Source: Blastococcus saxobsidens (GTDB lineage Bacteria > Actinomycetota > Actinomycetes > Mycobacteriales > Geodermatophilaceae). From it: a stretch of DNA of 64,000 nt. The translations under genes were made by a program, and so were the position numbers. This document shows, one piece after another, positions 459-52,210 of this stretch (position 1 is the stretch's first letter; each line of letters opens with the position of its first letter). Where the stretch lies: contig NZ_JAAGWG010000015.1 of NCBI RefSeq assembly GCF_010682065.1, positions 1-64,000 on the forward strand, in the 5' to 3' direction. The notes below the pieces were generated by a model. It worked only from the letters and a program-made list of their open reading frames with translations. It was not told the origin of the DNA and searched no databases.

Positions 459-493
459 GCTACTCACGGGTAACCGCCCTAGACTCCCGCGAC
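459..493 (+). promoter_or_regulatory. meaA promoter with GTTACC-N4-GGTAAC-like operator
   Basis: GCTACTCACGGGTAAC at 459-474 matches the palindrome GTTACC-N4-GGTAAC found upstream of three other genes here, with two mismatches, both in the left arm. A -10-like TAGACT at 480-485 lies 8 bases before the meaA ATG, so transcription probably starts at or next to the start codon. The operator would cover the -35/spacer region, consistent with repression. The promoter call is by eye. Confidence 0.55.
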
Positions 494-2512
494 ATGCCGT
501 TCCCTTCGAAGCCGTCGGAGCGCGACCGCCCCTGGGTCATGCGCACCTATGCCGGACACTCCTCGCCGGCCGAGTCGAACGCCCTGTACCGGCGCAACCT
601 GGCGAAGGGCCAGACCGGGCTGTCGGTCGCCTTCGACCTGCCGACGCAGACCGGGTACGACCCCGACGACGAGCTCGCCGTGGGCGAGGTCGGCAAGGTC
701 GGGGTGCCGGTCACGCACATCGGTGACATGCGCGCCCTCTTCGACGGCATCCCGCTCGACGAGATGAACACGTCGATGACGATCAACGCGACGGCGATGT
801 GGCTGCTCGCGCTCTACCAGGCCGTCGCCGAGGAGCACGGGCACGACGTCACCACGCTGGCGGGGACGACGCAGAACGACATCATCAAGGAGTACCTGTC
901 GCGGGGGACCTACGTCTTCCCGCCGGCTCCCTCGATGCGGCTGATCACCGACATGGTCGCCTACACGGTGACGACCATGCCGAAGTGGAACCCGATCAAC
1001 ATCTGCAGCTACCACCTGCAGGAGGCAGGTGCCACGCCGGAGCAGGAGATCGCCTACGCGATCAGCACCGCGATCGCCGTCCTGGACTCGGTGCGCGACT
1101 CCGGGCAGGTGCCGCAGGAGAAGTTCGGCGAGGTCGTCGCGCGCATCTCCTTCTTCGTCAACGCGGGCGTCCGCTTCGTCGAGGAGATGTGCAAGATGCG
1201 CGCCTTCACCCAGCTCTGGGACGAGCTGACGAAGGAGCGCTACGGCGTCGAGGACCCCAAGCACCGCCGCTTCCGCTACGGCGTCCAGGTCAACTCCCTG
1301 GGCCTGACCGAGGCGCAGCCGGAGAACAACGTCCAGCGGATCGTGCTGGAGATGCTCGCCGTCACCCTCTCCCGTGACTCCCGGGCCCGCGCCGTCCAGC
1401 TCCCGGCCTGGAACGAGGCGCTCGGCCTGCCCCGGCCCTGGGACCAGCAGTGGTCGCTGCGGCTGCAGCAGGTGCTGGCCTACGAGACCGACCTGCTCGA
1501 GTACGAGGACCTCTTCACCGGCTCGGTCGTCGTGGAGCAGAAGGTCGCGCAGATCCTCGAGGGCGCCCGCACCGAGATCGCGCGGGTGCAGGAGATGGGC
1601 GGGGCCGTGGCCGCCGTCGAGTCCGGCTACATGAAGGGCCAGCTGGTGGGTTCGCTGGCCGAGCGCCGCCGCCGGATGGAGAGCGGCGAGGACGTCGTCG
1701 TCGGCGTCAACAAGTTCGACACCACCGAGCCCAACCCGCTGACCGCCGACCTCGACACCGCGATCATGACGGTCGACCCGGCCGTGGAGGCCGCCGCCCA
1801 GGAGGCGGTGCGGAAGTGGCGCGCCGAGCGCGACCAGGGGAGGTGCGACGAGGCGCTGGACGCGCTGCGCGCGGCCGCCTCGTCGGACGTGAACCTGATG
1901 CCGGCGACGCTGGACTGCGCCCGCGCCGGCGTGACGACCGGCGAGTGGGCCGGCGTGCTGCGCGAGGTGTTCGGGGAGTACCGGGCCCCCACCGGCGTGG
2001 CTGCGGCCGCCGGCGGGGGAGAGGCCGACCAGGCGCTCACCGACGTCCGCGAGCGGGTGCGGGCCACCGGTGAGGAGCTCGGCGGCCGGCTGCGGTTCCT
2101 GGTCGGCAAGCCGGGGCTGGACGGGCACTCCAACGGCGCCGAGCAGATCGCCGTGCGCGCCCGTGACGCCGGCTTCGAGGTGATCTACCAGGGCATCCGG
2201 CTCACGCCCGCCCAGATCGTCTCGGCGGCCGTCGAGGAGGACGTGCACGTCGTCGGGCTCTCGGTGCTGTCCGGCTCCCACCTCCAGGTCGTTCCTGCGG
2301 TGCTGCAGGGGCTCCGGGAGGCCGGGCTGGACGACGTCCCCGTGGTCGTCGGCGGGATCATCCCGGACAGCGACGCGCGGCGGCTCCGCGAGCAGGGCGT
2401 GGCCCGGGTGTTCACGCCCAAGGACTTCGGCCTCAACGACATCATGGGTTCCGTCGTCGACGTGATCCGCGAGGCCAACGGCCTCGGGGACAAGGTGCCC
2501 GCCGGCGTCTGA
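494..2512 (+). CDS. meaA: Ethylmalonyl-CoA mutase (MeaA/Ecm), B12-dependent
   Basis: This 672-residue adenosylcobalamin enzyme is expected to convert (2R)-ethylmalonyl-CoA to methylsuccinyl-CoA in the ethylmalonyl-CoA pathway. The sequence strongly resembles Streptomyces MeaA: it begins directly at the RPWVMRTYAGHSS segment, lacks the long N-terminus of methylmalonyl-CoA mutases, and carries its own B12-binding domain. Y19 and R137 correspond to the substrate-carboxylate contacts Y89 and R207 of methylmalonyl-CoA mutase. The C-terminal domain has the lower-axial-ligand motif DGHSNG (His about 545), then LSVLSGSH and VVVGGIIPD. The ATG at 494 was chosen because homology begins there and a -10 hexamer sits 8 bases upstream; the frame is open back to 425 but without similarity. 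ccr, epimerase and meaB lie 10-14 kb downstream. Ordinary methylmalonyl-CoA mutase is the alternative but fits less well. Confidence 0.9.
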   Translation: MPFPSKPSERDRPWVMRTYAGHSSPAESNALYRRNLAKGQTGLSVAFDLPTQTGYDPDDELAVGEVGKVGVPVTHIGDMRALFDGIPLDEMNTSMTINATAMWLLALYQAVAEEHGHDVTTLAGTTQNDIIKEYLSRGTYVFPPAPSMRLITDMVAYTVTTMPKWNPINICSYHLQEAGATPEQEIAYAISTAIAVLDSVRDSGQVPQEKFGEVVARISFFVNAGVRFVEEMCKMRAFTQLWDELTKERYGVEDPKHRRFRYGVQVNSLGLTEAQPENNVQRIVLEMLAVTLSRDSRARAVQLPAWNEALGLPRPWDQQWSLRLQQVLAYETDLLEYEDLFTGSVVVEQKVAQILEGARTEIARVQEMGGAVAAVESGYMKGQLVGSLAERRRRMESGEDVVVGVNKFDTTEPNPLTADLDTAIMTVDPAVEAAAQEAVRKWRAERDQGRCDEALDALRAAASSDVNLMPATLDCARAGVTTGEWAGVLREVFGEYRAPTGVAAAAGGGEADQALTDVRERVRATGEELGGRLRFLVGKPGLDGHSNGAEQIAVRARDAGFEVIYQGIRLTPAQIVSAAVEEDVHVVGLSVLSGSHLQVVPAVLQGLREAGLDDVPVVVGGIIPDSDARRLREQGVARVFTPKDFGLNDIMGSVVDVIREANGLGDKVPAGV

Positions 2513-2548
2513 GCGACACGGTCGGGTGATCGTGCGCACGTCGCGGAA

Positions 2549-2568
2549 TGCCGGGGCCCGCCCCGGCA
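2549..2568 (+). terminator. Rho-independent-like hairpin after meaA
   Basis: Arms TGCCGGGG (2549-2556) and CCCCGGCA (2561-2568) pair perfectly around a 4-base loop, 36 bases after the meaA stop. No U-tract follows, which is common in high-GC actinobacteria. The rest of the 2513-2704 gap shows nothing else I can support. Confidence 0.55.
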
Positions 2569-2704
2569 CTGACCCCCGCGTGGAGAACGTGTGGGGGCTG
2601 ACGCGACGGCGCGCCCTGGACTACGGACGGACGACGACGGCGAGCTGTTGAGCACCCGCTCGACCCTCGCCCTCGTCCTCCTCCCTCAGAACAGGTAGTC
2701 CTCC

Positions 2705-4063
2705 GTGCTCGCTCGTCTCCGCCGTGTGCCCTTCGCGGCACAGGTGCTCCTCGCCCTCGTCGTCGGCGTCGCCCTCGGCCTGGTCGCCCGTGACATCGGC
2801 CCCGTCGCCGACGGCTCGCCCAACTGGCTGGCCAGCACCCTCCAGACCATCGGCGGCACCTTCGTCACGCTGCTGAAGGCGCTGGTGCCGCCGCTGATCG
2901 TCACCGCCGTCATCGTCTCCATCGCCAACCTCAAGCAGGTCTCCAACGCCGCCCGGCTGGCCGGCCAGACGCTGCTCTGGTTCGCCATCACCGCGTTGAT
3001 CGCCGTGGCCATCGGCATCGGCCTGGGCCTGCTCACCGAGCCCGGCCGCAACAGCTCGGTCGACCCCACCAGCGCGACCGACCCGGGCCGCACCGGCGGC
3101 TGGTTCGACTTCCTCACCGGTCTCGTGCCGGGCAACATCCTGGGCCTGCAGGCGTCCGCGGGCGCCGACGGCTCGGTGGGTCTGTCGTTCAACGTGCTGC
3201 AGCTGATCGTCATCTCGGTGGCCATCGGGATCGCCGTGCTCAAGGTCGGCGCGCCGGCCGAGCCCTTCCTGGGCTTCGTCCGGTCGGCCCTGGCGATCGT
3301 GCAGAAGGTGCTCTGGTGGGTCATCCTGCTGGCCCCGCTCGGCACGCTTGGCCTGATCGGCAACGCCGTCGCCACCTACGGGTGGGACTCCCTGGGCTCG
3401 CTCGGCGTGTTCGCCGGCTCGGTCTACGCCGGCCTGGCCCTGGTGCTCTTCGTCGTCTACCCGGTGCTGCTCAAGCTGCACGGCCTCTCGCCGCTGCGGT
3501 GGTTCGCCGGTGCGTGGCCGGCGATCCAGCTGGCCTTCGTCTCCCGCTCCTCGATCGGCACGCTGCCGGTGACCGAGCGGGTGACCGAGCAGAACCTCGG
3601 CGTCCCGCGGTCCTACGCCTCCTTCGCCGTGCCCCTGGGTGCCACGACGAAGATGGACGGCTGCGCGGCGATCTACCCGGCGCTGGCGGCGATCTTCGTC
3701 GCCCAGTTCTTCGGCGTGGACCTCTCGGTCACCGACTACCTGCTCATCGCGCTGGTCTCCGTCGTCGGTTCCGCCGCCACGGCCGGTGTCACGGGCGCGG
3801 TCGTCATGCTCACGCTGACCCTCTCGACGCTGGGGCTGCCGCTGGCCGGCGTCGGGCTCCTGCTGGCGATCGACCCCATCCTCGACATGGGCCGCACCGC
3901 GGTGAACGTGGCCGGTCAGGCCCTGGTGCCGACGATCGTCGCCAAGCGCGAGGGCATCCTCGACGTCGAGCGCTTCCGGTCGGGTCGTCCCGCGGAGCCG
4001 CTGGCCGCCGCCGAGCAGACCGGCGGGGTCGACAGCGACCTGCGCGCTCCCGTTCCCGCCTGA
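2705..4063 (+). CDS. Dicarboxylate/amino acid:cation symporter (DAACS family)
   Basis: A 452-residue polytopic membrane protein of the GltP/DctA type, expected to couple uptake of an acidic amino acid or C4-dicarboxylate to Na+ or H+. About eight hydrophobic segments and two re-entrant hairpins can be traced. The serine-rich hairpin is SRSSIGTLPVT (about residues 280-290). The cation/substrate motif of this family, usually NMDGT, appears here as TKMDGCA, and the second hairpin follows in VVGSAATAGVTGAVVML. The GTG start at 2705 precedes MLARLRRVPF, a positive N-terminus before the first helix. It is a single gene between two hairpin terminators. The substrate cannot be read from sequence; a carboxylate would suit the neighbouring acetate/C4 metabolism, but that is inference. 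Confidence 0.85.
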   Translation: MLARLRRVPFAAQVLLALVVGVALGLVARDIGPVADGSPNWLASTLQTIGGTFVTLLKALVPPLIVTAVIVSIANLKQVSNAARLAGQTLLWFAITALIAVAIGIGLGLLTEPGRNSSVDPTSATDPGRTGGWFDFLTGLVPGNILGLQASAGADGSVGLSFNVLQLIVISVAIGIAVLKVGAPAEPFLGFVRSALAIVQKVLWWVILLAPLGTLGLIGNAVATYGWDSLGSLGVFAGSVYAGLALVLFVVYPVLLKLHGLSPLRWFAGAWPAIQLAFVSRSSIGTLPVTERVTEQNLGVPRSYASFAVPLGATTKMDGCAAIYPALAAIFVAQFFGVDLSVTDYLLIALVSVVGSAATAGVTGAVVMLTLTLSTLGLPLAGVGLLLAIDPILDMGRTAVNVAGQALVPTIVAKREGILDVERFRSGRPAEPLAAAEQTGGVDSDLRAPVPA

Positions 4064-4066
4064 GCC

Positions 4067-4101
4067 GACGGGCCCGGTCCTCGCGAGAGGCCGGGCCCGT
4101 C
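4067..4101. terminator. Bidirectional hairpin between convergent genes
   Basis: Arms GACGGGCCCGG (4067-4077) and CCGGGCCCGTC (4091-4101) pair over 11 bp with a 13-base loop. The hairpin begins 3 bases after the symporter stop and ends next to the stop of the minus-strand lipoprotein gene, so it can serve both transcripts. Confidence 0.75.
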
Positions 4102-4102
4102 G

Positions 4103-4975: not shown

Positions 4976-5020
4976 ACGGGTAGGACGGCACGATCGTCCG
5001 GATGGTTCCACCGGAGACGG

Positions 5021-6265: not shown

Positions 6266-6272
6266 GGTTTCC

Positions 6273-6293
6273 GTTCCGGATTCTTTCCGGAAC
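6273..6293. promoter_or_regulatory. Palindrome between divergent EAL and nucS genes
   Basis: Perfect arms GTTCCGGA (6273-6280) and TCCGGAAC (6286-6293) are separated by five bases. The site is 8 bases upstream of the chosen EAL start and about 48 bases before nucS. Size and symmetry suit a dimeric repressor; the binding protein is unknown. Confidence 0.4.
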
Positions 6294-6340
6294 CCGGTGC
6301 CGGCGCGGCCCCGGGGAAGGGGGCGGTAGCGTCGGCGCCC

Positions 6341-7012
6341 GTGCGTCTGGTCATCGCCCGTTGCTCGGTCGACTACGTCGGTCGGCTCACCGCCCACCTC
6401 CCCATGGCGACCCGCCTGCTGCTGGTCAAGGCCGACGGGTCGGTGTCGGTGCACGCCGACGACCGCGCCTACAAGCCGCTGAACTGGATGACCCCGCCGT
6501 GCCGGCTCGAGGAGGACCTCGCCGACGGCGCCGGCACCTGGACGGTGACCAACAAGGCGGGGGAACAGCTGATCATCTCCATCGAGGAGGTGCTGCACGA
6601 CCACGCGCACGAGCTGGGCCCCGACCCCGGGCTGCAGAAGGACGGCGTCGAGGCCGAGCTGCAGCGGCTGCTGGCCCTGCACGTGGAGACCTTCGGCGCC
6701 GGGTGGTCGCTCGTGCGGCGGGAGTACCCCACGGCCATCGGCCCGGTCGACCTGCTGTGCCGGGACGCCGCCGGCGGAGTCGTGGCCGTGGAGATCAAGC
6801 GGCGTGGCGAGATCGACGGCGTCGAGCAGCTGACCCGGTACCTCGAGCTGCTCAACCGCGACCCGCTGCTCGCGCCGGTCAAGGGCGTCTTCGCCGCGCA
6901 GGAGATCAAGCCGCAGGCGCGGGTGCTCGCCGCCGACCGGGGCATCGACTGCGTCACCGTCGACTACGCCGTCCTCAAGGGCACCGACGACCCGACCCAG
7001 CGCCTCTTCTGA
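6341..7012 (+). CDS. nucS: Mismatch-specific endonuclease NucS (EndoMS)
   Basis: A 223-residue protein matching the usual length and opening ([16 protein letters not shown]) of actinobacterial NucS, the non-MutS mismatch-repair nuclease. The N-terminal DNA-binding/dimerisation half is followed by a RecB-like nuclease domain with D137 in GPVDLLC and the E151-x-K153 pair in VAVEIKRRG. The extreme C-terminus, TQRLF, has the form of a beta-clamp-binding tail, and actinobacterial NucS is known to act with the clamp. The GTG at 6341 is preceded by TAGCGT at 6327-6332, so the mRNA is probably leaderless or nearly so. The longer open frame upstream overlaps the divergent gene and was rejected. Confidence 0.95.
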
Positions 7013-7028
7013 GTTACCGGCCGGTAGC
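7013..7028 (+). promoter_or_regulatory. GTTACC-N4-GGTAAC-type operator before the dehydrogenase gene
   Basis: GTTACCGGCCGGTAGC begins one base after the nucS stop and ends 67 bases before the dehydrogenase start. It matches the shared palindrome with one mismatch (A to G in the right arm). I do not see a clear -10 hexamer next to it. Confidence 0.6.
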
Positions 7029-7095: not shown

Positions 7096-8877
7096 GTGGC
7101 CAGGGAACTGAACGAGGTCGGCGTCGTGGGGCTGGGCACCATGGGTGCCGGCATCGCGGAAGTACTCGCACGGGCGGGCCTGTCGGTCACGGCCGTCGAG
7201 GTCACCGACGAGGCGCTGGGCCGCGGCCGCGGTCACGTCGAGCAGTCCACCGACCGGGCCCTCGCCCGCGGGAAGCTGGACCCGGCGGAGCGGGACCAGA
7301 TCTTCGAGCGCATCCGGTTCAGCACGTCGCTGGAGGACCTGAGCACCGCCGAGCTGGTCATCGAGGCCATCCCCGAGCGCATGGAGCTCAAGGCCGACGT
7401 CTTCACCAAGCTCGACAAGATCTGCCCGCCGGACACCATCCTGGCGACCAACACCTCGAGCCTCTCGGTCACCGAGCTCTCGGTCGTCACGGGGCGGCCC
7501 AGCAAGGTGATCGGCATGCACTTCTTCAACCCGGCCCCGGTCATGAAGCTGGTCGAGGTCGTGCAGACCGTCGTCACCGAGCCCTCCGTGGTGGAGGACG
7601 TCGAGGCGCTGGCCGACCGGCTGGGCAAGGTCGACGTCACCATCGGTGACCGCGCCGGCTTCATCGCCAACGCGCTGCTGTTCGGCTACCTCAACCACGC
7701 GGTCTCGATGTTCGAGAACCGGTACGCCAGCCGCGAGGACATCGACGCCGCCATGCGCCTGGGCTGCGGCCTGCCCATGGGCCCGCTCGCGCTCATGGAC
7801 CTCATCGGCATCGACACCGCCTACGAGATCCTCGACACGATGTACAAGCAGTCGCGGAACCGGCTGCACGCCCCGAGCCCGATCATCAAGCAGATGATGA
7901 CCGCCGGTCTGCTCGGCCGGAAGGTCGGCCGCGGCTTCTACACCTACGCCGAGGCCGGGTCGGCCGAGGTCGTCCCCGACGCGCAGACCCCGACCCCCGG
8001 CGGTGCCGCCGAGGGCGCCCGCGAGGTGCGGACGGTCGGCGTCGTCGGCTCGGGCACGATGGCCACCGGCATCATCGAGGTGGTCGCCAAGGGCGGCTTC
8101 GACGTCGTGTTCGTCGCCCGTGCCGCCGACAAGGTCGACGCCGTCCAGAAGGCGCTGGCCAAGTCGCTGGACAAGCAGGTGGTCCGCGGCCGGCTCGAGG
8201 AGAGCGCCCGCGACGAGATCCTGGCCCGGGTCACCGGCACCACCTCCCTGGACGACCTCGCCGACCGCGATCTGATCATCGAGGCCGTCGTCGAGTCGCT
8301 GCCGGTCAAGGAGGCGCTGTTCGCCAACCTCGGTGAGCTCGCCAAGCCCGGTGCGGTCCTGGCGACGACGACGTCGAGCCTGCCCGTCATCGAGTGCGCC
8401 AAGGCCAGCGGCCGCCCGGCCGACGTCGTGGGCATGCACTTCTTCAACCCGGCGCAGGTGATGAAGCTGGTGGAGGTCGTGTCGACGATCTCCACCGCAC
8501 CCGACGTGGCCGCCACGATCCACGCGGTGTCGGCGCAGCTGAAGAAGCACGCCGTGTCCTGCACCGACCGGGCCGGCTTCATCGTCAACGCGCTGCTCTT
8601 CCCGTACCTGAACGACGCGGTGAAGATGCTCGAGGCGCACTACGCCACCGCCGACGACATCGACGCGGCCATGAAGGTCGGCTGTGGCTACCCGATGGGT
8701 CCCTTCGAGCTGCTCGACGTCGTCGGCCTGGACGTCTCCCTGGCCATCGAGCGCGAGCTCTACACCGAGTTCCGGGAGCCCGGTTTCGCGCCGGCTCCGC
8801 TGCTCGAGCACCTGGTCACCGCCGGCTACCTCGGCCGCAAGACCGGTCGCGGGTTCCGGGACTACGCCAGCCGCTGA
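7096..8877 (+). CDS. Tandem-domain 3-hydroxybutyryl-CoA dehydrogenase
   Basis: 593 residues containing two complete 3-hydroxyacyl-CoA dehydrogenase units, about 1-290 and 313-593. Each has a Rossmann N-domain, the catalytic segment GMHFFNPAxVMKLVEVV (His and Glu) and a C-terminal helical domain (DRAGFI.NALLF, GC.G.PMGP). Domain 1 has an intact GLGTMG dinucleotide motif with an acidic residue after beta-2 (TAVEVTD). Domain 2 reads GSGTMA and has Arg at that place (VFVARAADK), which may change cofactor preference. It probably interconverts acetoacetyl-CoA and 3-hydroxybutyryl-CoA for the ethylmalonyl-CoA or polyhydroxybutyrate route. The GTG at 7096 has a good ribosome-binding site (AGAGGAG, 7081-7087); earlier open frame is the nucS shadow. 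Confidence 0.9.
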   Translation: MARELNEVGVVGLGTMGAGIAEVLARAGLSVTAVEVTDEALGRGRGHVEQSTDRALARGKLDPAERDQIFERIRFSTSLEDLSTAELVIEAIPERMELKADVFTKLDKICPPDTILATNTSSLSVTELSVVTGRPSKVIGMHFFNPAPVMKLVEVVQTVVTEPSVVEDVEALADRLGKVDVTIGDRAGFIANALLFGYLNHAVSMFENRYASREDIDAAMRLGCGLPMGPLALMDLIGIDTAYEILDTMYKQSRNRLHAPSPIIKQMMTAGLLGRKVGRGFYTYAEAGSAEVVPDAQTPTPGGAAEGAREVRTVGVVGSGTMATGIIEVVAKGGFDVVFVARAADKVDAVQKALAKSLDKQVVRGRLEESARDEILARVTGTTSLDDLADRDLIIEAVVESLPVKEALFANLGELAKPGAVLATTTSSLPVIECAKASGRPADVVGMHFFNPAQVMKLVEVVSTISTAPDVAATIHAVSAQLKKHAVSCTDRAGFIVNALLFPYLNDAVKMLEAHYATADDIDAAMKVGCGYPMGPFELLDVVGLDVSLAIERELYTEFREPGFAPAPLLEHLVTAGYLGRKTGRGFRDYASR

Positions 8878-12029: not shown

Positions 12030-13361
12030 TCAGATGCCGCGGAAGCGGTTGATCGCCTCGAGGTGCTTCTCGCGCTTCTCGGCGTCCTTGACGCCCAGCC
12101 CCTCCTCGGGGGAGAGGGTCAGGACGCCGACCTTGCCCTGGTGGGCGTTCTTGTGGACGTCGAGGGCGGCCTGGCCGACGTCGGCCATCGGGTAGACCTT
12201 GGACAGCGTCGGGTGGATGAGGCCCTTGTCGATGAGCCGGTTGGCCTCCCACGCCTCCTTGTAGTTCGCGAAGTGCGAGCTGAGGATGTTCTTGAGGTTC
12301 ATCCAGAGGTACCGGTTGTCGTACTGGTGCATGTAGCCGGTGGTCGAGGCGCAGGTGACGATCGTGCCGCCCTTCTTGGCGACGTAGACGCTGGCGCCGA
12401 AGGTCTCGCGGCCCGGGTGCTCGAAGACGATGTCGACGTCCTCGCCGCCGGTCAGCTCACGGATCTTCTTGCCCAGGCGCTGCCACTCCTTGGGGTCCTG
12501 GTTGTTCTCGTCCTTCCAGAACTTGTACTGCTCCGCGGACCGGTCGATGATCAGCTCGGCGCCCATCTTGCGGACGATCTCGGCCTTCTCGGGGCTGCTG
12601 ACCACGCAGACGGGGATCGCGCCGCCGTTGAGCGCCATCTGGGTGGCGTAGGAGCCCAGGCCGCCGGAGGCGCCCCAGATCAGCACGGTGTCGCCCTGCT
12701 TCATGTGGGCGCCGTTGCGGCTGACCAGCTGCCGGTAGGCGGTCGAGTTGACCAGGCCGGGGGCCGCCGCCTCCTCCCAGGAGAGGTGGGCGGGCTTGGG
12801 CATCAGCTGGTTGCTCTTGACCAGGGCCATCTCGGCGAGACCGCCGAAGTTGGTCTCGAAGCCCCAGATCCGCTGCTGCGGGTCCATCATCGTGTCGTCG
12901 TGCCCGGCCGGGTCCTCGAGCTCGACCGACAGGCAGTGCGCGACGACCTCGTCGCCCGGCTTCCACTTGTTGACGCCCGGGCCCACGCGCAGCACGACGC
13001 CGGCGAGGTCGGAGCCCACGATGTGGTACGGCAGGTCGTGGCGCTTGGTGAGCTCGGAGACCCGGCCGTAGCGCTCGAGGAAGCCGAAGGTCGAGACCGG
13101 CTCGAAGATCGACGTCCAGACGGTGTTGTAGTTCACCGAGGAGGCCATGACGGCCACGATCGCCTCGCCCGGGCCGAGCTCCGGGGTGGCGACCTCCTGG
13201 ACGTGCAGCGACTTGCGCGGGTCCTTGTCCTTGGTGGCCACCCCCTCGAACATGGTCTGCTCGTCCTTGCGCACCACGACGGCGCGGTAGGACTCCGGCA
13301 CAGCCAGGCCGCCCAGCGCGTCCAGCTGGTCGGCGAGGATGGCGTCCCTGATCTCGTTCAC
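12030..13361 (-). CDS. ccr: Crotonyl-CoA carboxylase/reductase
   Basis: 443 residues of the medium-chain dehydrogenase superfamily. It reductively carboxylates crotonyl-CoA with CO2 and NADPH to (2S)-ethylmalonyl-CoA, the key step of the ethylmalonyl-CoA pathway. All four CO2-pocket residues known from the Kitasatospora enzyme are present with constant offset: N79, F168-E169 (WGFETNFGG) and H363 (ILSSHFANYKEA). The NADPH-binding loop is IWGASGGLGSYATQMA (about 228-243). Full length for the family. The ATG at 13361 has GGGAG upstream. Its promoter carries the perfect form of the shared palindrome. The epimerase gene lies just upstream on the same strand but ccr seems to have its own promoter. 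Confidence 0.97.
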   Translation of the reverse strand: MNEIRDAILADQLDALGGLAVPESYRAVVVRKDEQTMFEGVATKDKDPRKSLHVQEVATPELGPGEAIVAVMASSVNYNTVWTSIFEPVSTFGFLERYGRVSELTKRHDLPYHIVGSDLAGVVLRVGPGVNKWKPGDEVVAHCLSVELEDPAGHDDTMMDPQQRIWGFETNFGGLAEMALVKSNQLMPKPAHLSWEEAAAPGLVNSTAYRQLVSRNGAHMKQGDTVLIWGASGGLGSYATQMALNGGAIPVCVVSSPEKAEIVRKMGAELIIDRSAEQYKFWKDENNQDPKEWQRLGKKIRELTGGEDVDIVFEHPGRETFGASVYVAKKGGTIVTCASTTGYMHQYDNRYLWMNLKNILSSHFANYKEAWEANRLIDKGLIHPTLSKVYPMADVGQAALDVHKNAHQGKVGVLTLSPEEGLGVKDAEKREKHLEAINRFRGI

Positions 13362-13424: not shown

Positions 13425-13442
13425 ATGTTACCGGTCGGTAAC
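13425..13442 (-). promoter_or_regulatory. ccr promoter with perfect GTTACCG-N2-CGGTAAC operator
   Basis: GTTACCGGTCGGTAAC at 13427-13442 has perfect 7-bp arms. Read on the minus strand, the end of the palindrome (TAAC) plus the next two bases forms TAACAT (13430-13425), a TANNNT -10 hexamer. RNA polymerase and a dimeric repressor would therefore compete directly. The predicted start is about 57 bases before the ccr ATG. Confidence 0.65.
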
Positions 13443-14166: not shown

Positions 14167-15357
14167 ATGTCCCGCTCGGTCATCGTCAGCGGCGCCCGTA
14201 CCCCGATGGGCCGGCTCCTCGGCTCGCTCAAGGACTTCTCCGCCGCCGACCTCGGTGGCTTCGCGATCAAGGCGGCCCTCGAGCGCGCCGGCGTCAGCGG
14301 CGACCAGGTCGACTACGTGATCATGGGCCAGGTCATCCAGGCCGGTGCCGGGCAGAACCCCGCCCGCCCGGCGGCCGTCAACGGCGGCATCCCGATGTCG
14401 GTGCCGGCGCTGACCATCAACAAGGTCTGCCTCTCGGGCCTGTCGGCCATCGCGATGGCCGACCAGCTCATCCGCGCCGGCGAGTACGACATCGTCGTCG
14501 CCGGTGGCATGGAGTCGATGACGCAGGCGCCGCACATCCTGGCGAACTCGCGCACCGGCACCAAGTACGGCGACACCAAGCTCATCGACTCGATGGCCCA
14601 CGACGGCCTCTCCGACACCTTCGACCAGGTGGCGATGGGCGAGCTGACCGAGAAGGCCAACTCCCGGTACGACCTGACCCGCGAGGAGCAGGACGAGTTC
14701 GCCGCGGCCAGCCACCAGAAGGCCGCGCGGTCGCACAAGGACGGCGTCTTCGCCGAGTCGATCACCCCGGTGCTCATCCCGCAGCGCAAGGGCGACCCGA
14801 TCGAGTTCACCGACGACGAGGGCATCCGTCCCGACACGACGGCGGAGAGCCTGTCGAAGCTGAAGCCGGCCTTCGCCAAGGACGGCACGATCACCGCCGG
14901 CACCGCCTCGCAGATCTCCGACGGCGCCTGCGCGGTCGTGGTCATGAGCGCGGCCAAGGCCGCCGAGCTCGGCATCACCCCGATCGCGGAGATCGGCGCG
15001 CACGGCGTCGTCGCCGGTCCGGACGCCACCCTGCAGAGCCAGCCGTCGCGCGCGATCCAGAAGGCCTGCGCGCGGGAGGGCATCGACCCCAAGGACCTCG
15101 ACGTCGTCGAGCTCAACGAGGCCTTCGCCGCCGTCGGCATCGTCTCCACCCGCGAGCTGGGCATCGACCCCGAGAAGGTCAACCCCAACGGTGGCGCCAT
15201 CGCGCTGGGCCACCCGGTCGGCATGAGCGGCGCCCGCGTGGTCCTCGACGTCGCGCTGGAGATCCGTCGCCGGGGCCTGAAGGTCGGCGCCGCCGCGCTG
15301 TGCGGCGGCGGTGGTCAGGGCGACGCCCTGATCCTGCACGCGCCCACCGGCGCGTGA
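14167..15357 (+). CDS. Acetyl-CoA C-acetyltransferase (thiolase)
   Basis: 396 residues, full length for a biosynthetic-type thiolase that condenses two acetyl-CoA to acetoacetyl-CoA, the entry to the ethylmalonyl-CoA route. Visible catalytic elements are C88 in [10 protein letters not shown], the NEAFA motif ([11 protein letters not shown]), the [10 protein letters not shown] histidine and the C-terminal CGGGGQGDA cysteine. The ATG at 14167 follows GGAGG (14158-14162). Its stop overlaps the start of meaB by GTGA, so the two are translationally coupled. Confidence 0.95.
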
Positions 15358-16379
15358 CCTCGGACGGCCTCGCGGTCCAGCCCGACGCCTCCGCCGCCCC
15401 TCGCGGGCGGCGGGGGCGCCGTGCTGTCGACGTCCCCACCCTCGTCGAGCGCGCCCGCGAGGGGGACGCGCGCGCCGTGGCGCGGCTGATCTCCCTGGTC
15501 GAGGACGCCAGCCCGGCCCTCCGGGAGGTCGCGGCGGCACTGGCCCCGCACACCGGCGGTGCCCAGGTCATCGGGCTGACCGGCTCACCGGGCGTCGGCA
15601 AGTCGACGTCGACGACGGCGCTGGTGCGCGCGCTGCGGCAGGCCGGAAAGCGGGTCGGCGTGCTGGCCGTCGACCCGTCGTCGCCGTTCTCCGGCGGCGC
15701 GCTGCTGGGCGACCGGGTGCGCATGCAGGACCACGCCGGCGACAGCGGCGTCTTCATCCGGTCCATGGCCTCCCGCGGGCACCTCGGCGGGCTGTCCTGG
15801 GCCACGCCGCAGGCGCTCCGGGTGCTCGACGCCGCGGGCTGCGACGTCGTGCTGATCGAGACCGTGGGTGTCGGGCAGTCCGAGCTCGAGATCGCCTCGC
15901 TGGCCGACACGACGCTGGTGCTGGTGGCCCCCGGGATGGGCGACGGCATCCAGGCGGCCAAGGCCGGGATCCTCGAGGTCGCCGACGTCTTCGTCGTCAA
16001 CAAGGCCGACCGGGACGGCGCCGACCAGACCGTCCGCGACCTCCGCTACATGCAGTCGCTCGGCGGCCGGCACTCCGAGGCCGGCAACTGGCGCCCGCCG
16101 ATCTGCCGGACCGTCGCCTCGCGCGACGCCGACAGCGGCGTGGACACCGTGCTGGAGAAGATCGAGGAGCACCGCCGGTGGCTGGAGTCCACCGGCGAGG
16201 GCCGCCGCCGGCGCGGCGAGCGCGCCGCCCGGGAGATCGAGGCGATCGCGCTGGCGACGCTCCGCAAGCGGATGGGCGACGTCCGCGGGTCGGCGGCGCT
16301 GGAGACGCTGGCCGGCCAGGTCGTCGACGGCGTCACCGATCCCTACCGCGCCGCCGACGAGCTGCTCAGCCGGCTGTAG
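15354..16379 (+). CDS. meaB: MeaB, GTPase chaperone of acyl-CoA mutases
   Basis: 341 residues of the MeaB/ArgK G3E GTPase family, which loads and protects adenosylcobalamin in methylmalonyl-, ethylmalonyl- or isobutyryl-CoA mutases. The P-loop [12 protein letters not shown] spans residues about 74-85. Further motifs are [18 protein letters not shown], the Walker B/switch ETVGVGQSE and the guanine-specificity motif NKAD. A basic, variable N-terminus of about 30 residues precedes the fold. The GTG at 15354 overlaps the thiolase stop. meaA and icmA in this window are the likely clients. The 3' end overlaps the convergent HTTM gene by 14 bp. Confidence 0.95.
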
Positions 16380-36154: not shown

Positions 36155-38182
36155 TCAGTCGACCGGCGGCGGGAACTGCACGGGCCGCGGGAGGCTGATC
36201 CCGAAGACGTGCGCGGGCTCCCGGTAGGGGTCGAGCTCGACGTAGTTGAACTGGCCCCAGTCGTACCGGGCGCCGGTGAGCTCGTCGGTGACCGCGAAGC
36301 GCTCGTGCCAGTCCAGGCCGAGCGTCGGCAGGTCCAGCGCCGTCGTCCCGATCTGGGTGTTCTGGCTCGAGAGGTTGACGACCACGAGGACGGCGTCGGC
36401 CGAACCGGGGTCGGTCTTGGTGAAGCAGAGCAGGTTCGGGTTGTCCACCTGGTGGAACCGCAGCGTGCGCAGCTGCTGCAGCGCCGGGTGGGCGCGCCGG
36501 ACCTCGTTGAGCCGCCGCAGGTAGGGCGCCAGGCTCCGGCCGCTGGCCTCGGCACCGGCCCAGTCACGAGGGCGGAGCGAGTACTTCTCGCTCTGGTGGT
36601 ACTCCTCGCTGCCCGGCTTGACCGCCACGTGCTCGAACAGCTCGAAGCCCGAGTAGACGCCCCAGGTCGGGCTCAGCATCGAGGCGAGCACGGCGCGGAT
36701 CTTGAACATCGGCGGGCCGCCGAACTGCAGCGACTCGTGCAGGATGTCCGGGGTGTTCACGAAGAAGTTCGGTCGCATGTAGTGCGAGTTCGTGGCGAGC
36801 TCGCGGCCGTACTCCTCGATCTCGCCGCGCTCGGTCCGCCACGTGAAGTACGTGTACGACTGCGTGAACCCGATGCGCGCCAGCTGGTGCATCATCGCCG
36901 GCCGGGTGAACGCCTCCGCCAGGAAGAGCACGTCAGGGTCGGTCTTCTTGACCTCCCAGATCAGCCAGTGCCAGAAGCTCAGCGGCTTGGTGTGCGGGTT
37001 GTCCACGCGGAAGATCCGAACCCCGGCCTCCATCCAGACCCGGATGACCCGGAGGCACTCGGCGTAGATGCCCTCCGGGTCGTTGTCGAAGTTGATCGGG
37101 TAGATGTCCTGGTACTTCTTCGGCGGGTTCTCGGCGTAGGCGATGGTGCCGTCGGGCTTGGTGGTGAACCACTCCGGGTGGGTCTCGACCCAGGGGTGGT
37201 CGGGCGCCGCCTGGAGCGCGAAGTCCAGCGCGACCTCCATGCCCAGCTCGCGGGTGCGGGCGACGAACGCCTTGAAGTCGTCCATGGTGCCGAGCTGCGG
37301 GTGGACCGCGTCGTGCCCGCCCTCGGCGCTGCCGATGGCCCAGGGGGAGCCGACGTCGTCGGGACCGATCTCGTGCGGGTTGCCGCCGGGGAACTGGGCG
37401 GTGTTCGGGCCCTTGCGGTTGACCGTGCCGATCGGGTGGATCGGCGGCAGGTAGACGATGTCGAAGCCCATGTCGGCGATCGCCGGCAACCGGTCGGACG
37501 CCGTCGTGAAGGTGCCGTGGGTGGGGACGCCGCCGACGACGGGGCCCTCCGAGCGCGGGAAGAACTCGTACCAGGAGCCGAACAGCGCCTCCTTGCGGTC
37601 CACGAACACCTCGTAGCGCGGCGAGGCGGTGACCAGCTCGCGCACCGGGTGCTCGTGCAGGTAGCGCTGCAGGCCCGAGGCCAGCGCCGGGGCGATCCGG
37701 ACGGTGAGCTCCTGGGAGGTGTCCCGCAGGGCCTCGGCCGCGGCGGTCACCCGACCGCGCCAGCCCTCGTCGGCCTCGGCGGCCACGCGCTCGAGCAGGC
37801 GCGCGCCCTCCTCGAGGTCGTTGGCCAGCTCCTCGGCGCCCTGGCCGGCCTCCACCTTGACCTCGACGGCGTGCTTCCAGGTCTCCAGCGGATCGCTCCA
37901 CGCCTCGACCCGGAAGGTCCAGCGGCCCTCCCGGTCGGGCACGACCGTGGTCAGCCAGCGATCGGGCTCCGGCGGCAGCTTCGCCATGCGGAGGAACCCG
38001 GTCGGCTCGCCGTCCGGTGAGGTCCACACGACGTTCGCGGCGACGGCGTCGTGCCCCTCGCGAAACACCGTGGCGGTGATCGGCAGGTGTTCACCGACCA
38101 CCGCACGGGCCGAGAAGGTCCCGCAGGACACGACGGGGGCGACATCGGTGATGCCGAGGCGGAGATCAGCGCGTCCAGTCAT
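36155..38182 (-). CDS. glgE: Alpha-1,4-glucan:maltose-1-phosphate maltosyltransferase
   Basis: 675 residues. It extends alpha-1,4-glucans from maltose-1-phosphate. The nucleophile D394 ([11 protein letters not shown]) and acid/base E423 (FLAEAFTRP) fall at exactly the positions known for Streptomyces GlgE. An N-terminal beta-sandwich domain and insert helices (about 120-190) match the family. TAGCGT lies eight bases before the ATG on the minus strand (38196-38191), so this is likely the operon promoter and the mRNA is leaderless. It is divergent from glgP. Confidence 0.97.
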
Positions 38183-42567: not shown

Positions 42568-44742
<2,175 letters not shown>

Positions 44743-45675: not shown

Positions 45676-45681
45676 TAGGGT
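45676..45681 (+). promoter_or_regulatory. -10 hexamer of the enoyl-CoA hydratase gene
   Basis: TAGGGT lies seven bases before the ATG, the same geometry as many genes here, implying a leaderless transcript. The 45618-45670 gap before it is purine/pyrimidine-rich and contains an imperfect hairpin (CCCCCTCC ... GGAGGGGG). Confidence 0.5.
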
Positions 45682-45688
45682 TCGGGCC

Positions 45689-46477: not shown

Positions 46478-46622
46478 ACGGGGCGGTCCGTCGCCGAAAG
46501 GTCATCCGACCGTCACGCGTGAGTACCGGGCGCGGCCCCTCCGGGTCGGCCACAATGCGCGAGGCCGTCCGGTCAGGACCAACGGGGTCCGGGCCGAGGA
46601 CGGCACCACACCAGGAGGACCT

Positions 46623-48676: not shown

Positions 48677-48749
48677 CCGAGCTCGCGAGGGCACGCGGAG
48701 ACGCAGCACCGCCGGGCACGGTTGCGACGAGCGCCGGCGAGGAGGCACC

Positions 48750-49637
48750 GTGACCGCGCTCGCGGAGAGCGTCGCCAATGCCGGCGGCGTGGCTCCCGGG
48801 ACGCCGGTGCGGCCCTCGCGCCGGCGCGGTGCCGGGGCGTGGCGGATCGCCGTCCTCCTGGCCCTCGGCACCTACTTCCTCGTCCCGATCGGCGCCTCGA
48901 TCTGGTATACGGTCCGCGACCGGGCCGACGGCGGGGTCACCGGCCGCGTGTACGGCGCGATCCCCGGCGCCGCGGGCTTCGCCGAGGCCTTCGGCCGCTC
49001 GCTGCTGCTGGCCGGCCTGACCGTGGTCCTGGCCCTGCTGCTCATGGTCCCCACCGTCGTGCTCGTGGAGCTGCGGCTGCCCCGGCTGCGGACGGCGGTG
49101 GAGCTCTTGACGCTCGCACCGCTCGTGCTGCCCCCGATCGCGCTGGTCGTCGGTGTGCGCAGCGTGCTGGCCTGGGCGCCGGACTACTTCTACGGCACCC
49201 CGGTCGCCGAGGCGATGTTCGCGCTCCAGAGGCCGGCGCTGCCGTGGATCCTGGTGCTGGTCTACGTCGTCCTGGCGCTGCCCTTCGTCTACCGCGCGCT
49301 CGACGCCGGCGTGCGCGGCTCGGACCTGCGCACCCTCACCGAGGCCGCCCGCAACCTCGGCGCCTCGTGGCCGCGGGTGCTCGGATCGGTCGTGCTGCCG
49401 GTCCTGCGCACCTCGGTCCTCAACGCGGCGTTCCTCACCGTGGCCCTCGTGCTCGGCGAGTTCACCGTCGCCTCCATCCTCGGCTTCGAGACCTTCCCCA
49501 CGTGGATCGTGCGGATCTCGGGGTCCCAGGCGCAGTTGTCGGTCGCGGTGTCGGTGCTGTCCCTCGTCGTCACCTGGCTGCTGCTTCTGCTCATCTCGAC
49601 GCTCGACCGGCGCCGGGGCCCGAAGGAGAGCTCATGA
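48750..49637 (+). CDS. ABC importer permease 2
   Basis: 295 residues with six membrane segments and the EAA loop LTEAARNLGASWPRVLGSVVLP. The start is the GTG at 48750 behind GGAGG (48741-48745). It ends by overlapping the ATPase start (ATGA). It forms a heterodimeric channel with permease 1. Confidence 0.92.
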   Translation: MTALAESVANAGGVAPGTPVRPSRRRGAGAWRIAVLLALGTYFLVPIGASIWYTVRDRADGGVTGRVYGAIPGAAGFAEAFGRSLLLAGLTVVLALLLMVPTVVLVELRLPRLRTAVELLTLAPLVLPPIALVVGVRSVLAWAPDYFYGTPVAEAMFALQRPALPWILVLVYVVLALPFVYRALDAGVRGSDLRTLTEAARNLGASWPRVLGSVVLPVLRTSVLNAAFLTVALVLGEFTVASILGFETFPTWIVRISGSQAQLSVAVSVLSLVVTWLLLLLISTLDRRRGPKESS

Positions 49638-50728
49638 CCACCGCCCGTGCTCGCGTCGAGGCCCCGGTGCGTCCCGGTGTGGCCGTCCGGCTCGAGGGCC
49701 TGACCCGTCGCTACGGGTCCGTCCTCGCCCTCGACGGTCTGGACCTGGACATCACCGGCGGGGAGTTCCTGGCCCTGCTCGGCCCCTCCGGCTGCGGGAA
49801 GACCACGGCGCTGCGGGCGATCGCCGGGTTCGATCGGCCCGACGCCGGCGGGGTGCTGATCGACGGCCGCGACGTCACCGACGTGCCCCCGAACAAGCGG
49901 GACACCGGGATGGTCTTTCAGGCCTACAGCCTGTTCCCGAACCTGACGGTGGCCGAGAACGTGGCCTTCGGGCTGCGGGTGCGCCGGCGCGGCAGGGCCG
50001 AGCAGACCCACCGGGCCGCGGAGCTCCTGGAGCTGGTCGGGCTGGCCGATAGCGGGAACCGCTACCCCCACCAGCTCTCCGGCGGCCAGCAGCAGCGGGT
50101 CGCGCTCGCCCGAGCCCTGGCGGTCGCGCCGCAGGTGCTGCTGCTCGACGAACCCCTCTCGGCGCTCGACGCCCAGGTGCGGGTGCAGCTGCGCGAGGAG
50201 ATCCGGCGGATCCAGCTCGACCTCGGGATCACCACCGTGTTCGTCACCCACGACCAGGCCGAGGCGCTCTCGGTCGCCGACCGGGTGGGTGTGATGCGTG
50301 CCGGGCGGCTGGAGCAGATCGCCTCGCCCGACGACCTCTACGAGCGCCCGGCGACGGCGTTCGTGGCCGAGTTCGTGGGCACGATGAACCGGCTGCCCGC
50401 GACGCTCTCCGGCGGCGAGGTGCACCTGCTCGGCGCCCGGCGTCCCCTGGCCGGGGCAGCCCCGTCCGGCGGGCCGCTGGTGGCCCTGGTCCGCCCGGAG
50501 TCGCTGCTGGTCTCGGCCGACCCGGCCGGCACGGGCCGGGTGGTGACCCGCACGTTCTCCGGGGCCTCCACCCGCGTGCTCGTCGGGCTGGGCGACGGCG
50601 TCGAGGTGCGCATCGACGTCGCCAGCGCCGACAGCCAGCTGCTGCGGCCGGGGGCCGCCGTCACGGTGACCCCCGCCGACCGGCCGGTGCTCGTCGCGCC
50701 GGCCGAGCCGGCGGGCGACGGGGCGTAG
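49634..50728 (+). CDS. ABC importer ATPase (PotA/FbpC-like)
   Basis: 364 residues. Walker A GPSGCGKTT, Q-loop VFQAYSLFPN, signature LSGGQQQRV, Walker B VLLLDEPLSALD and H-loop VFVTHDQAEAL are all intact. A C-terminal TOBE-like domain (about 265-350) includes LVALVRPESLLV. It powers the importer encoded just upstream. Confidence 0.95.
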   Translation: MTTARARVEAPVRPGVAVRLEGLTRRYGSVLALDGLDLDITGGEFLALLGPSGCGKTTALRAIAGFDRPDAGGVLIDGRDVTDVPPNKRDTGMVFQAYSLFPNLTVAENVAFGLRVRRRGRAEQTHRAAELLELVGLADSGNRYPHQLSGGQQQRVALARALAVAPQVLLLDEPLSALDAQVRVQLREEIRRIQLDLGITTVFVTHDQAEALSVADRVGVMRAGRLEQIASPDDLYERPATAFVAEFVGTMNRLPATLSGGEVHLLGARRPLAGAAPSGGPLVALVRPESLLVSADPAGTGRVVTRTFSGASTRVLVGLGDGVEVRIDVASADSQLLRPGAAVTVTPADRPVLVAPAEPAGDGA

Positions 50729-50755
50729 CGTCGGGGGAGTCGCGGTTCACCTCGC

Positions 50756-50777
50756 GCACCGGCCCCCGCGCCGGTGC
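50756..50777 (+). terminator. Hairpin after the ABC importer operon
   Basis: Perfect arms GCACCGGC (50756-50763) and GCCGGTGC (50770-50777) enclose a 6-base loop, 27 bases past the ATPase stop. Confidence 0.65.
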
Positions 50778-50830
50778 CGGACCGGGAGCACGAACACCCG
50801 AGCCTGCACCGGCTCAGTCAGGTCGACCGC

Positions 50831-51001
50831 ATGACCTCCGCCCCGTCCGCCGTCATCCCCGCCTCGTCGGCGGAGGCCACCTGCGAGGTCTGCCCGCATG
50901 CGCTGGCCGACCACGACCGCATCTCGCTGCGCTTCTGCCAGGCGACCCAGGCCCAGCTCGCCGGGGGCGCTGCGGCGCACGGGTGCGTCTGCCCCGCCTG
51001 A
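50831..51001 (+). CDS. RGCVC-type small cysteine-rich protein
   Basis: 56 residues from the ATG at 50831. Cysteines occur as CEVC (near residue 17) and in the C-terminal HGCVC, with RFC between, consistent with a small zinc or disulfide-stabilised fold. It matches the actinobacterial RGCVC family, with His in place of Arg. Function unknown. The start at 50774 adds residues that overlap the terminator hairpin and was rejected. Confidence 0.75.
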
Positions 51002-51029
51002 GCGGAGCGGAGTGCGCGATCATGCGCGG

Positions 51030-52160
51030 GTGACAGCCCCCGATCGCACGCCCTCCGTCGTCGACCGGTCCGATCCCGCCGGCCGGGCCTGGGTGGACCG
51101 GGCCGTGGCCGCGGTCGAGGCCGACGCCCGGCGCAGCGCCGACACCCACCTGCTGGTCTACCCGCTGCCGCCGGAGTGGGGCGTCGATCTGTACCTCAAG
51201 GACGAGTCGACGCACCCGACCGGCAGCCTCAAGCACCGGCTGGCCCGGTCGCTGTTCCTCTACGGGCTGTGCTCGGGGCAGATCACCGAGGGCAGCACGA
51301 TGGTGGAGGCCTCCAGCGGCTCGACGGCGGTGAGCGAGGCCTACTTCGCCCGGATGCTGGGGCTGCCGTTCGTCGCGGTCATGCCGCGGTCGACCAGCCC
51401 GGAGAAGATCGCGCTGATCGAGTTCCACGGGGGCCGCTGCCATTTCGTCGATCGCGCACCGGACATGTACGAGGAGGCCCGGCGGCTGGCTGCCGACTGC
51501 GGCGGCCACTACCTCGACCAGTTCACCTACGCCGAACGGGCCACCGACTGGCGGGGCAACAACAACATCGCCGAGTCGATCTTCGAGCAGTTGTCGGCGG
51601 AGCCGCACCCGGTGCCCGAGTGGGTCGTGGTCGGCGCCGGCACGGGCGGCACCAGCGCCACCATCGGTCGCTACATCCGCTTCCGCCGGCACCCCACCCG
51701 GCTGGCCGTCGTCGATCCGGAGAACTCCGCGTTCCTCCCCGGCTACACAGCCGGTGACCTCGGCTGGACGACGGGGACGCCCTCGCGCATCGAGGGGATC
51801 GGCCGGCCCCGGGTGGAGCCCTCCTTCGTGCCCACGATCGTCGACCGCATGATCGGCGTGCCCGACGCCGCCTCGCTGGCCGCCGTGCGGCACCTGGAGC
51901 GGGTCACCGGCCGGCGGGCGGGCGGCTCGACCGGCACCAACCTCTGGGGCGCGTTCGGGCTGGTCGCGGAGATGGTGGCCGCCGGCCGCCGGGGGAGCGT
52001 CGTCACGTTGCTGTGCGACGGCGGGGAGCGCTACGCCCACACGTACTACTCCGACGAGTGGGTGGCCGCCCAGGGACTCGACCTGGCGCCCCACGCCGAG
52101 ACCCTCCGCCGATTCGCCGCGACGGGGGAGTGGACGGGCCTCGGCGGGACCCGGGCGTGA
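51030..52160 (+). CDS. PLP-dependent cysteine synthase/desulfhydrase-family lyase
   Basis: 376 residues. The pyridoxal-phosphate lysine is K68 in [11 protein letters not shown]. The substrate-binding loop is [15 protein letters not shown], and the phosphate-binding glycines are [10 protein letters not shown]. The sequence pattern is like the mycobacterial Cds1-type L-cysteine desulfhydrase rather than classical CysK, from memory; both reactions remain possible. The GTG at 51030 starts MTAPDRTPS. It lies 28 bases after the RGCVC gene. Confidence 0.85.
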
Positions 52161-52192
52161 TGTGACTCACCTGCCCCTCGTACCGCAGCGGC

Positions 52193-52210
52193 GTTACCCA
52201 CCAGTAACCT
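52193..52210 (+). promoter_or_regulatory. etfB promoter with GTTACC-N4-GGTAAC-type operator
   Basis: GTTACCCACCAGTAAC (52193-52208) matches the shared palindrome with one mismatch. As at ccr, the terminal TAAC plus two bases makes a -10 hexamer, TAACCT (52205-52210), so operator and -10 overlap in the same way. The predicted leader before etfB is about 60 bases. Confidence 0.65.

What the first reader, a model, noticed from the sequence alone, without database searches (positions are those of the whole stretch)
459..52208. One 16-bp operator, GTTACC-N4-GGTAAC, at meaA, the dehydrogenase gene, ccr and etfB
The sites are at 459-474 (two mismatches), 7013-7028 (one), 13427-13442 (perfect, 7-bp arms) and 52193-52208 (one). 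At ccr and etfB the last TAAC of the palindrome is also the start of a TANNNT -10, the same architecture at loci nearly 39 kb apart. The genes share a pathway: thiolase product reduction, crotonyl-CoA carboxylation, ethylmalonyl-CoA mutation and ETF electron transfer. This implies one repressor, perhaps TetR-like and acyl-CoA-responsive, controlling an ethylmalonyl-CoA regulon. I do not know a published regulator for it.
Basis: partly seen in the sequence, partly recalled or inferred. Interest (0 to 1): 0.78.

Follow-up and report, generated by a model that had tools for sequence, protein, structure and literature searches.

The report
Shared switch site for fat-burning genes
A short mirror-image DNA site sits in front of fat-burning and acetate-building genes in a soil bacterium and its relatives, and probably lets one fat-sensing protein switch them together.

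Summary
The four sites are real and far above chance. Refined consensus: GYTACYnRYnRGTARC (core TACY-N4-RGTA). In Geodermatophilaceae it is kept upstream of ccr (60 of 63 loci; one second copy set aside), etfB (28 of 30) and meaA (28 of 30). At ccr and etfB the right arm forms a TANNNT -10 in 65 of 65 and 28 of 28 core-bearing loci. The regulon is wider than the ethylmalonyl-CoA pathway: 11 of 14 core-site loci in the genome precede acyl-CoA genes (fadAB, two acyl-CoA dehydrogenases, fadD, a lipid-import-like operon, an EtfD-like protein, a CitE/malyl-CoA-lyase-like gene, hbd, ccr, meaA, etfB). Before the FadE5-like dehydrogenase it is kept in 26 of 26 orthologues from 11 other families. So this is an old fatty-acid-catabolism operator to which ethylmalonyl-CoA genes are joined. 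A paralogue beside fadA2/fabG4/htdX is the main rival. Binding, ligand and sign of control are inferred.

The parts
459..474 (+). operator GCTACTCACGGGTAAC upstream of meaA, 19 bp before the ATG
   Evidence: core in 28 of 30 family meaA loci (own locus included) at 16-20 bp
480..485 (+). putative -10 TAGACT of meaA just downstream of the operator (short or no leader)
   Evidence: sequence; TACACT/TAGACT-like hexamers visible in most rows; inference
494..2512 (+). meaA-like (ethylmalonyl-/methylmalonyl-CoA) mutase
   Evidence: acid_CoA_mut_N 480 bits, acid_CoA_mut_C 136 bits
7013..7028 (+). operator GTTACCGGCCGGTAGC, directly after the stop codon of nucS, 67 bp before hbd
7096..8877 (+). 3-hydroxybutyryl-CoA dehydrogenase (two domains)
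   Evidence: NF005875, 670 bits
12030..13361 (-). ccr, crotonyl-CoA carboxylase/reductase
   Evidence: TIGR01751, 600 bits
13427..13442 (-). operator GTTACCGACCGGTAAC (read towards ccr), 65 bp before its start, perfect palindrome
13425..13430 (-). putative -10 TAACAT of ccr formed by the right arm of the operator
   Evidence: TANNNT in 65 of 65 core-bearing ccr loci
52193..52208 (+). operator GTTACCCACCAGTAAC, 69 bp before etfB
52205..52210 (+). putative -10 TAACCT of etfB formed by the right arm of the operator
   Evidence: TANNNT in 28 of 28 core-bearing family loci
52278..53057 (+). etfB, electron transfer flavoprotein beta subunit
   Evidence: NF040731, 167 bits, below its curated cut-off of 445
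53092..54054 (+). etfA, electron transfer flavoprotein alpha subunit, downstream of etfB
   Evidence: PF00766, PF01012

Best explanation
The palindrome is the operator of a fatty-acid/acyl-CoA catabolism regulon of Actinomycetes. A dimeric TetR-family regulator of the acyl-CoA-sensing FasR group, most likely the genome's FasR orthologue (contig C64:157860-158501, outside the window), binds TACY-N4-RGTA. At ccr and etfB it would cover the -10 and block RNA polymerase; long-chain acyl-CoA would enter the protein's tunnel and release it, turning on lipid import, acyl-CoA ligase, acyl-CoA dehydrogenases, FadAB, ETF and EtfD. The ethylmalonyl-CoA genes ccr and meaA and the hbd gene are wired into the same signal, so that the acetyl-CoA made by beta-oxidation is assimilated. 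Shown here: the site, its conservation, its targets, its place on the -10 at ccr and etfB, the orthology of FasR and the match to the FasR co-crystal DNA. Inferred: which TetR binds, that it represses, and the ligand.
For: Site enrichment. Targets: 11 of 14 core-site loci. Conservation: ccr 66 of 80 loci, 60 of 63 in the Geodermatophilaceae set; etfB and meaA 28 of 30 each, own locus included; fadE5-like 26 of 26 orthologues in 11 other families. -10 overlap 65 of 65 and 28 of 28. FasR: the best solved relative is 6o6p, 2.7e-57, which is FasR, with IADRAGVSKPVLYQHF identical. The 25-bp FasR co-crystal DNA holds two one-mismatch cores 13 bp apart, seen in 10 of 200000 shuffles. The core lies at the promoter of FasR orthologues in 9 of 30 loci, 15 of 6000 shuffles, against 0 of 30 for the L063-type TetR. 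40 of 42 site-enriched genomes have FasR (101 of all 118 have it), and 14 of 17 genomes without FasR have two or fewer core sites, though six of those 17 are under 90% complete.
Against: The genome's own fasR has only a degenerate site (GGAACCCCTCGGTAAC, score 7.8). G053 and G068, 99-100% complete, are site-rich but show no FasR, and G053 keeps the fadE5 sites. 61 of 101 genomes with FasR are not site-enriched. The L063-type TetR tracks the site count more strongly than FasR (p 1e-9 against 0.0025, not corrected for relatedness) and is in 26 of 26 genomes with the fadE5 site, FasR in 25. Mycobacterial FasR is reported as an activator of fas-acpS, not a repressor of beta-oxidation. The L083-type TetR carries the site in 6 of 6 f20 loci fetched. 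8 of 12 own-genome sites do not form a TANNNT with the right arm.
Confidence: 0.55

Rival explanations
1. The same fatty-acid regulon, but read by the TetR_C_32 paralogue (L083; C14:47331-48065), which lies between an acyl-CoA oxidase-like gene and the fadA2-fabG4-htdX operon.
For: Its neighbours are fatty-acid genes. Its f20 (Streptomyces-like) orthologues have the core between the tetR and a divergent acyl-CoA dehydrogenase in 6 of 6 loci fetched, and the three of these compared hit L083 best in the own genome.
Against: No operator at its own locus here. Only 11 of 42 site-enriched genomes have it by my thresholds, MadR-type proteins counted in. The f20 site may belong to the divergent dehydrogenase.
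Confidence: 0.25
2. One reading: a dedicated ethylmalonyl-CoA pathway repressor.
For: meaA, hbd, ccr and a CitE/malyl-CoA-lyase-like gene carry sites.
Against: fadAB, fadD, two acyl-CoA dehydrogenases, an Mce/Mla-type operon, etfB and an EtfD-like gene carry the same site. In other families the same site is kept at the fadE5-like gene.
Confidence: 0.05
3. The L063-type TetR (Rv1019-type by recalled synteny, in 81 of 118 genomes) reads the site.
For: Present in all 26 genomes with the fadE5 site, and the strongest raw association with site counts.
Against: 0 of 30 of its loci have the TACY core at the tetR promoter. 21 of 30 carry a different operator, YTACG-N4-CGTAR, in the same locus, and 1 of the 50 distinct ccr sites has G at position 6. 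Three f28 genomes are site-enriched without it.
Confidence: 0.07
4. A regulator outside the TetR family, or one not examined, reads the site.
For: No direct binding data; no TetR gene of the genome carries a strict site.
Against: FasR co-crystal DNA and sites at FasR-type and FdmR-type promoters point to this TetR group.
Confidence: 0.08

Closest known systems
FasR (Rv3208) of Mycobacterium tuberculosis, TetR family, and its fas-acpS operator
   Same: Orthologue in this genome (2.7e-57 to 6o6p). The co-crystal DNA holds two one-mismatch cores. Acyl-CoAs of C16 and longer are reported to release it from DNA (passages).
   Different: Known as an activator of fatty-acid synthase I. Here the sites lie on catabolic promoters, at ccr and etfB over the -10, which suggests repression. 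The published site is two imperfect copies 13 bp apart, not one good palindrome.
FdmR (Rv0238) of mycobacteria
   Same: A long-chain acyl-CoA-responsive repressor of fatty-acid degradation (as cited). A TetR in the f2 locus with fadA2-fabG4-htdX-type genes near fadE5 is taken to be it by recalled synteny; fadE5 there carries the operator.
   Different: No clear orthologue in this genome (best own hits 27-36%). The FdmR paper is not in the library, so its operator was not compared.
CcrR of Methylorubrum extorquens
   Same: A TetR regulator acting on ccr (recalled).
   Different: Alphaproteobacterial; recalled as an activator of ccr. Not compared by sequence here.
MadR (Rv0472c)
   Same: TetR with acyl-CoA ligands (abstract start); the MadR-type protein (so named by recalled synteny) is the nearest f2 relative of L083, 36%.
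   Different: Published consensus TCTGTGxxxxxxxGT at desA1/desA2 (passage), unlike TACY-N4-RGTA.

Membership tests
One operator shared by a fatty-acid/acyl-CoA catabolism regulon | Palindromic site well above chance in the genome | tested here: met
   16 places against 5 for the reversed pattern; 48 against 12 with the looser pattern
One operator shared by a fatty-acid/acyl-CoA catabolism regulon | Targets are genes of fatty-acid and acyl-CoA metabolism | tested here: met
   11 of 14 core-site loci; the share of such genes in the whole genome was not measured
One operator shared by a fatty-acid/acyl-CoA catabolism regulon | Conserved at orthologous genes in related genomes | tested here: met
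   ccr 66 of 80, etfB 28 of 30, meaA 28 of 30, fadE5-like 26 of 29 upstreams and 26 of 26 true orthologues
One operator shared by a fatty-acid/acyl-CoA catabolism regulon | Expression responds to fatty acids through the site | not testable with these tools
   needs expression data
FasR regulon | A FasR orthologue is encoded | tested here: met
FasR regulon | Operator matches DNA known to bind FasR | tested here: met
   two one-mismatch cores in the 25-bp co-crystal DNA; 10 of 200000 shuffles
FasR regulon | FasR gene carries the site at its own promoter | tested here: inconclusive
   9 of 30 loci, but only a degenerate site in the own genome
FasR regulon | FasR present wherever the operator is enriched | tested here: inconclusive
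   40 of 42 genomes; exceptions G053 and G068
FasR regulon | FasR binds these promoters and acyl-CoA releases it | not testable with these tools
   bench test needed
FdmR system | FdmR orthologue in the genome | tested here: not met
   best own hits 27-36% to other TetRs; best E 3e-21 here against 7e-28 to 1e-34 in f20 and 2e-70 to 1e-139 in f2
Dedicated ethylmalonyl-CoA regulon | Sites confined to ethylmalonyl-CoA pathway genes | tested here: not met
   fadAB, fadD, acyl-CoA dehydrogenase, Mce/Mla-type, etfB and EtfD-like sites

The most novel reading that the evidence does not exclude
FasR, known as an activator of FAS I in mycobacteria, is the ancestral acyl-CoA-released repressor of beta-oxidation across Actinomycetes, and in Geodermatophilaceae it also drives the ethylmalonyl-CoA pathway, so that one switch joins fat breakdown to acetyl-CoA assimilation. 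Paralogues FdmR, MadR, L083 and the desaturase regulator then arose with neighbouring operator specificities (TACY-N4-RGTA against TACG-N4-CGTA).
Probability: 0.35. Interest if true: 0.75.

Novelty: new member of a known kind. Interest (0 to 1): 0.58.

Why it matters
It gives a concrete, searchable operator for the fatty-acid catabolism regulon of a large bacterial class. It predicts that acetate assimilation through the ethylmalonyl-CoA pathway is switched by fatty acyl-CoA and not by its own intermediates. It offers testable roles for FasR and its paralogues beyond mycobacteria, useful for polyketide precursor (ethylmalonyl-CoA) and lipid engineering.

Tried and rejected
Rejected: sites as chance. 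Rejected: the 37379 site as functional (inside a gene). Disfavoured: an ethylmalonyl-CoA-only regulon; the L063-type TetR; FdmR as the own-genome regulator. A guide by autoregulation inside the own genome led nowhere: none of the 37 TetR_N matches has a strict site at its promoter. Three of the 14 core loci have no clear lipid gene: C28/C74:934, C38:191949, C75:81318. A first idea that L083 is the regulator was weakened by its distribution.

Limits. Gene calls come from a simple script. The Geodermatophilaceae ccr set of 63 was picked by record title; it leaves out L112, a second ccr copy of B. endophyticus without the core (60 of 64 with it), and holds L085, a record titled Bacillus. The etfB and meaA loci are the 30 best matches from 38 family genomes and include the own locus. 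The 28 genomes for the fadE5 test were picked by hand from the 118. A first FasR promoter count (12 of 38) had eight loci added after sites had been seen in three of them and two genomes counted twice; the count of 9 of 30 uses the loci only. Orthologue presence was set by hand from E-values and is not corrected for relatedness. The shuffles keep base content, not relatedness. Names such as Rv1019, Rv0473 and FadE5 are recalled by synteny or sequence resemblance. No binding or expression test was possible.
Full report
What was checked. The pattern GTTACC-N4-GGTAAC occurs at the four stated places with the stated mismatches, plus one 2-mismatch hit at 37379 inside a called gene. 0 of 100 shuffles of the window gave 5 matches. 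The whole genome (4.09 Mb, 77 contigs) has 48 places at up to 2 mismatches against 12 for the pattern read backwards, and 35 of 48 are intergenic by my gene calls. The closest named relatives by ccr are Blastococcus (Geodermatophilaceae), up to 97% identity.

Refining the site. Eighty named ccr loci were compared (the best 80 of 463). In most of them a site lies 32-105 bp before the ccr start, and its letters vary within GYTACYnRYnRGTARC. With the strict 14-base core [CT]TAC[CT]N4[AG]GTA[AG], 66 of 80 loci have it in the 250 bp upstream, against 1 of 8000 shuffles. In the 63 loci that I took as Geodermatophilaceae by title it is 60; L112, a second ccr copy without the core, was left out of that set. 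The 14 misses hold four of four Pseudonocardia and four of four Aeromicrobium loci, three of the latter with near matches such as GTTTCCCGTCGGTAAC. For etfB 28 of 30 and for meaA 28 of 30 loci, the best matches in 38 genomes of the family with the own locus among them, have the core, at 61-71 bp (109 in two) and 16-20 bp from the start, against 0 and 1 of 1500 shuffles. At ccr and etfB the right arm starts a TANNNT hexamer in 65 of 65 and 28 of 28 core-bearing loci (L142 was left out). The letters around it change, so promoter and operator seem constrained together. At meaA the operator is followed by TACACT/TAGACT-like hexamers and then the ATG, so the transcript probably has almost no leader (inference). 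The -10 overlap is not a rule: 4 of 12 own-genome sites have it.

The regulon. NYTACYNNNNRGTARN without mismatch gives 16 places in the genome against 5 for the reversed pattern. Two of these are the same sequence on contig starts that look duplicated (C28, C74) and two are a pair 23 bp apart, so there are 14 loci. Eleven lie upstream of acyl-CoA genes: meaA, hbd, ccr and etfB in the window; fadA-fadB (C75:138263, with a sugar-transporter gene on the other side); a 767-aa Fe-S/CCG protein (C1:108181), called EtfD-like from recalled resemblance to Rv0338c/EtfD (abstract start seen); a CitE/HpcH lyase that may be the malyl-CoA lyase (C5:53789); an MlaF/Mce-type ATPase with permease genes read by eye (C2:126372); an acyl-CoA dehydrogenase (C17:20693; the site overlaps the end of purE, 23 bp before the gene); a fatty-acid-CoA ligase (C26:188154); and a 612-aa acyl-CoA dehydrogenase with two sites (C77), here called FadE5-like from recalled sequence. 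The other three loci (C28/C74:934, C38:191949, C75:81318) have no clear link, although the glycosyltransferase gene at C75:81318 has a similar gene with a site in an f20 genome (L260).

Age of the site. I looked upstream of the FadE5-like gene in 28 genomes that I picked from the class set. All 26 genomes with a clear orthologue (61-69% identity), from 11 families other than the window's own, carry the core; 15 of 26 have two strict copies, 23-27 bp apart. Of 29 upstreams examined the three without it are two second paralogues in f2 and one 28% hit; one further locus gave no full match. Shuffles: 3 of 1450. Thus the operator is an old feature of fatty-acid catabolism, and the ethylmalonyl-CoA genes are members of that regulon. 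In genome G018 (f20) the sites fall at an acyl-CoA dehydrogenase/tetR pair, a thioesterase-like gene, the FadE5-like gene and a biotin-carboxylase-like gene (read by eye), beside several unrelated genes (15 of 18 places read).

Which protein reads it. The genome has 37 TetR_N matches, and none has a strict site at its promoter. Three belong to one related group: L058, L063 and L083. L058 is the FasR orthologue: 6o6p at 2.7e-57, an entry of the FasR paper, identical over IADRAGVSKPVLYQHF. At the residues Leu98, Leu106, Phe123 and Val163 named in that paper's passages it has Leu, Met, Tyr and Ile, by my count on the alignment. The oligonucleotide in the FasR-DNA crystal (passage) holds TACTGGCGAGTT and TACGTACGGGTA, each one mismatch from TACY-N4-RGTA, 13 bp apart; 10 of 200000 shuffles of it hold two such sites. 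The 12-base core lies at the promoter of FasR orthologues in 9 of 30 loci, 15 of 6000 shuffles; for L083-type in 6 of 18 (all f20), for FdmR-type and similar in 5 of 20, for L063-type in 0 of 30. 40 of 42 site-enriched genomes have FasR, and 14 of 17 genomes without it have two or fewer sites.

Against FasR: its own site in this genome is poor; two site-rich genomes lack it; 61 of the 101 genomes with FasR are not site-enriched; and the L063-type has a stronger raw association. L063 is set aside because a different operator, YTACG-N4-CGTAR, lies in 21 of 30 of its loci. L083 stays the main rival: it sits with an acyl-CoA oxidase-like gene and fadA2-fabG4-htdX-like genes, a gene group that in f2 lies with the FdmR-like TetR near fadE5. 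FdmR itself has no clear orthologue here.

Mechanism. Overlap of the operator with the -10 at ccr and etfB fits repression. Released by long-chain acyl-CoA, as reported for FasR-DNA binding (passages), the regulator would free uptake, activation, beta-oxidation, electron transfer and the ethylmalonyl-CoA route at once. Sign and ligand are inference.

What is known. FasR is published as an activator of fas-acpS (passages). FdmR is cited as a long-chain acyl-CoA-responsive repressor of fatty-acid degradation; its paper is not held, so I cannot say whether its motif equals this one. MadR has a different published consensus. Ten literature searches gave listings; I saw passages of eight papers, none in full, and saw no description of this operator at ccr, meaA or etfB in them.

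Noticed in passing
L214:3226-3256 (own genome C74) and 20 of the 29 other loci L215-L243: Loci of a highly conserved TetR (L063 type), which in the own genome lies next to a fatty-acid desaturase gene, carry YTACG-N4-CGTAR: 21 of 30 loci, 4 of 600 shuffles; 16 of the 21 have two copies 15 bp apart. Probably the desaturase regulator's own operator, one base away from the fatty-acid operator.
   Followed up: partly
   Followed up: no
G000:C28:1-14000 and G000:C74:1-14000: Both contigs hold the same site at 933-948 and a TetR match at 12746-12883 with the same score, so their starts appear to be an assembly duplication.
   Followed up: no
G000:C75:81317-81332 and L260: A glycosyltransferase gene has the core site upstream in this genome and a similar gene has it in an f20 genome, there next to a TetR that looks like KstR (resemblance by eye and recalled).
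   Followed up: partly
window 6341-7012: nucS (endonuclease NucS) ends directly before the operator of the hbd gene, which lies in the 83 bp between nucS and hbd.
   Followed up: no
window 14167-16379: A thiolase and meaB lie beside the ccr region but no core site was found there, although they may serve the same pathway.
   Followed up: no
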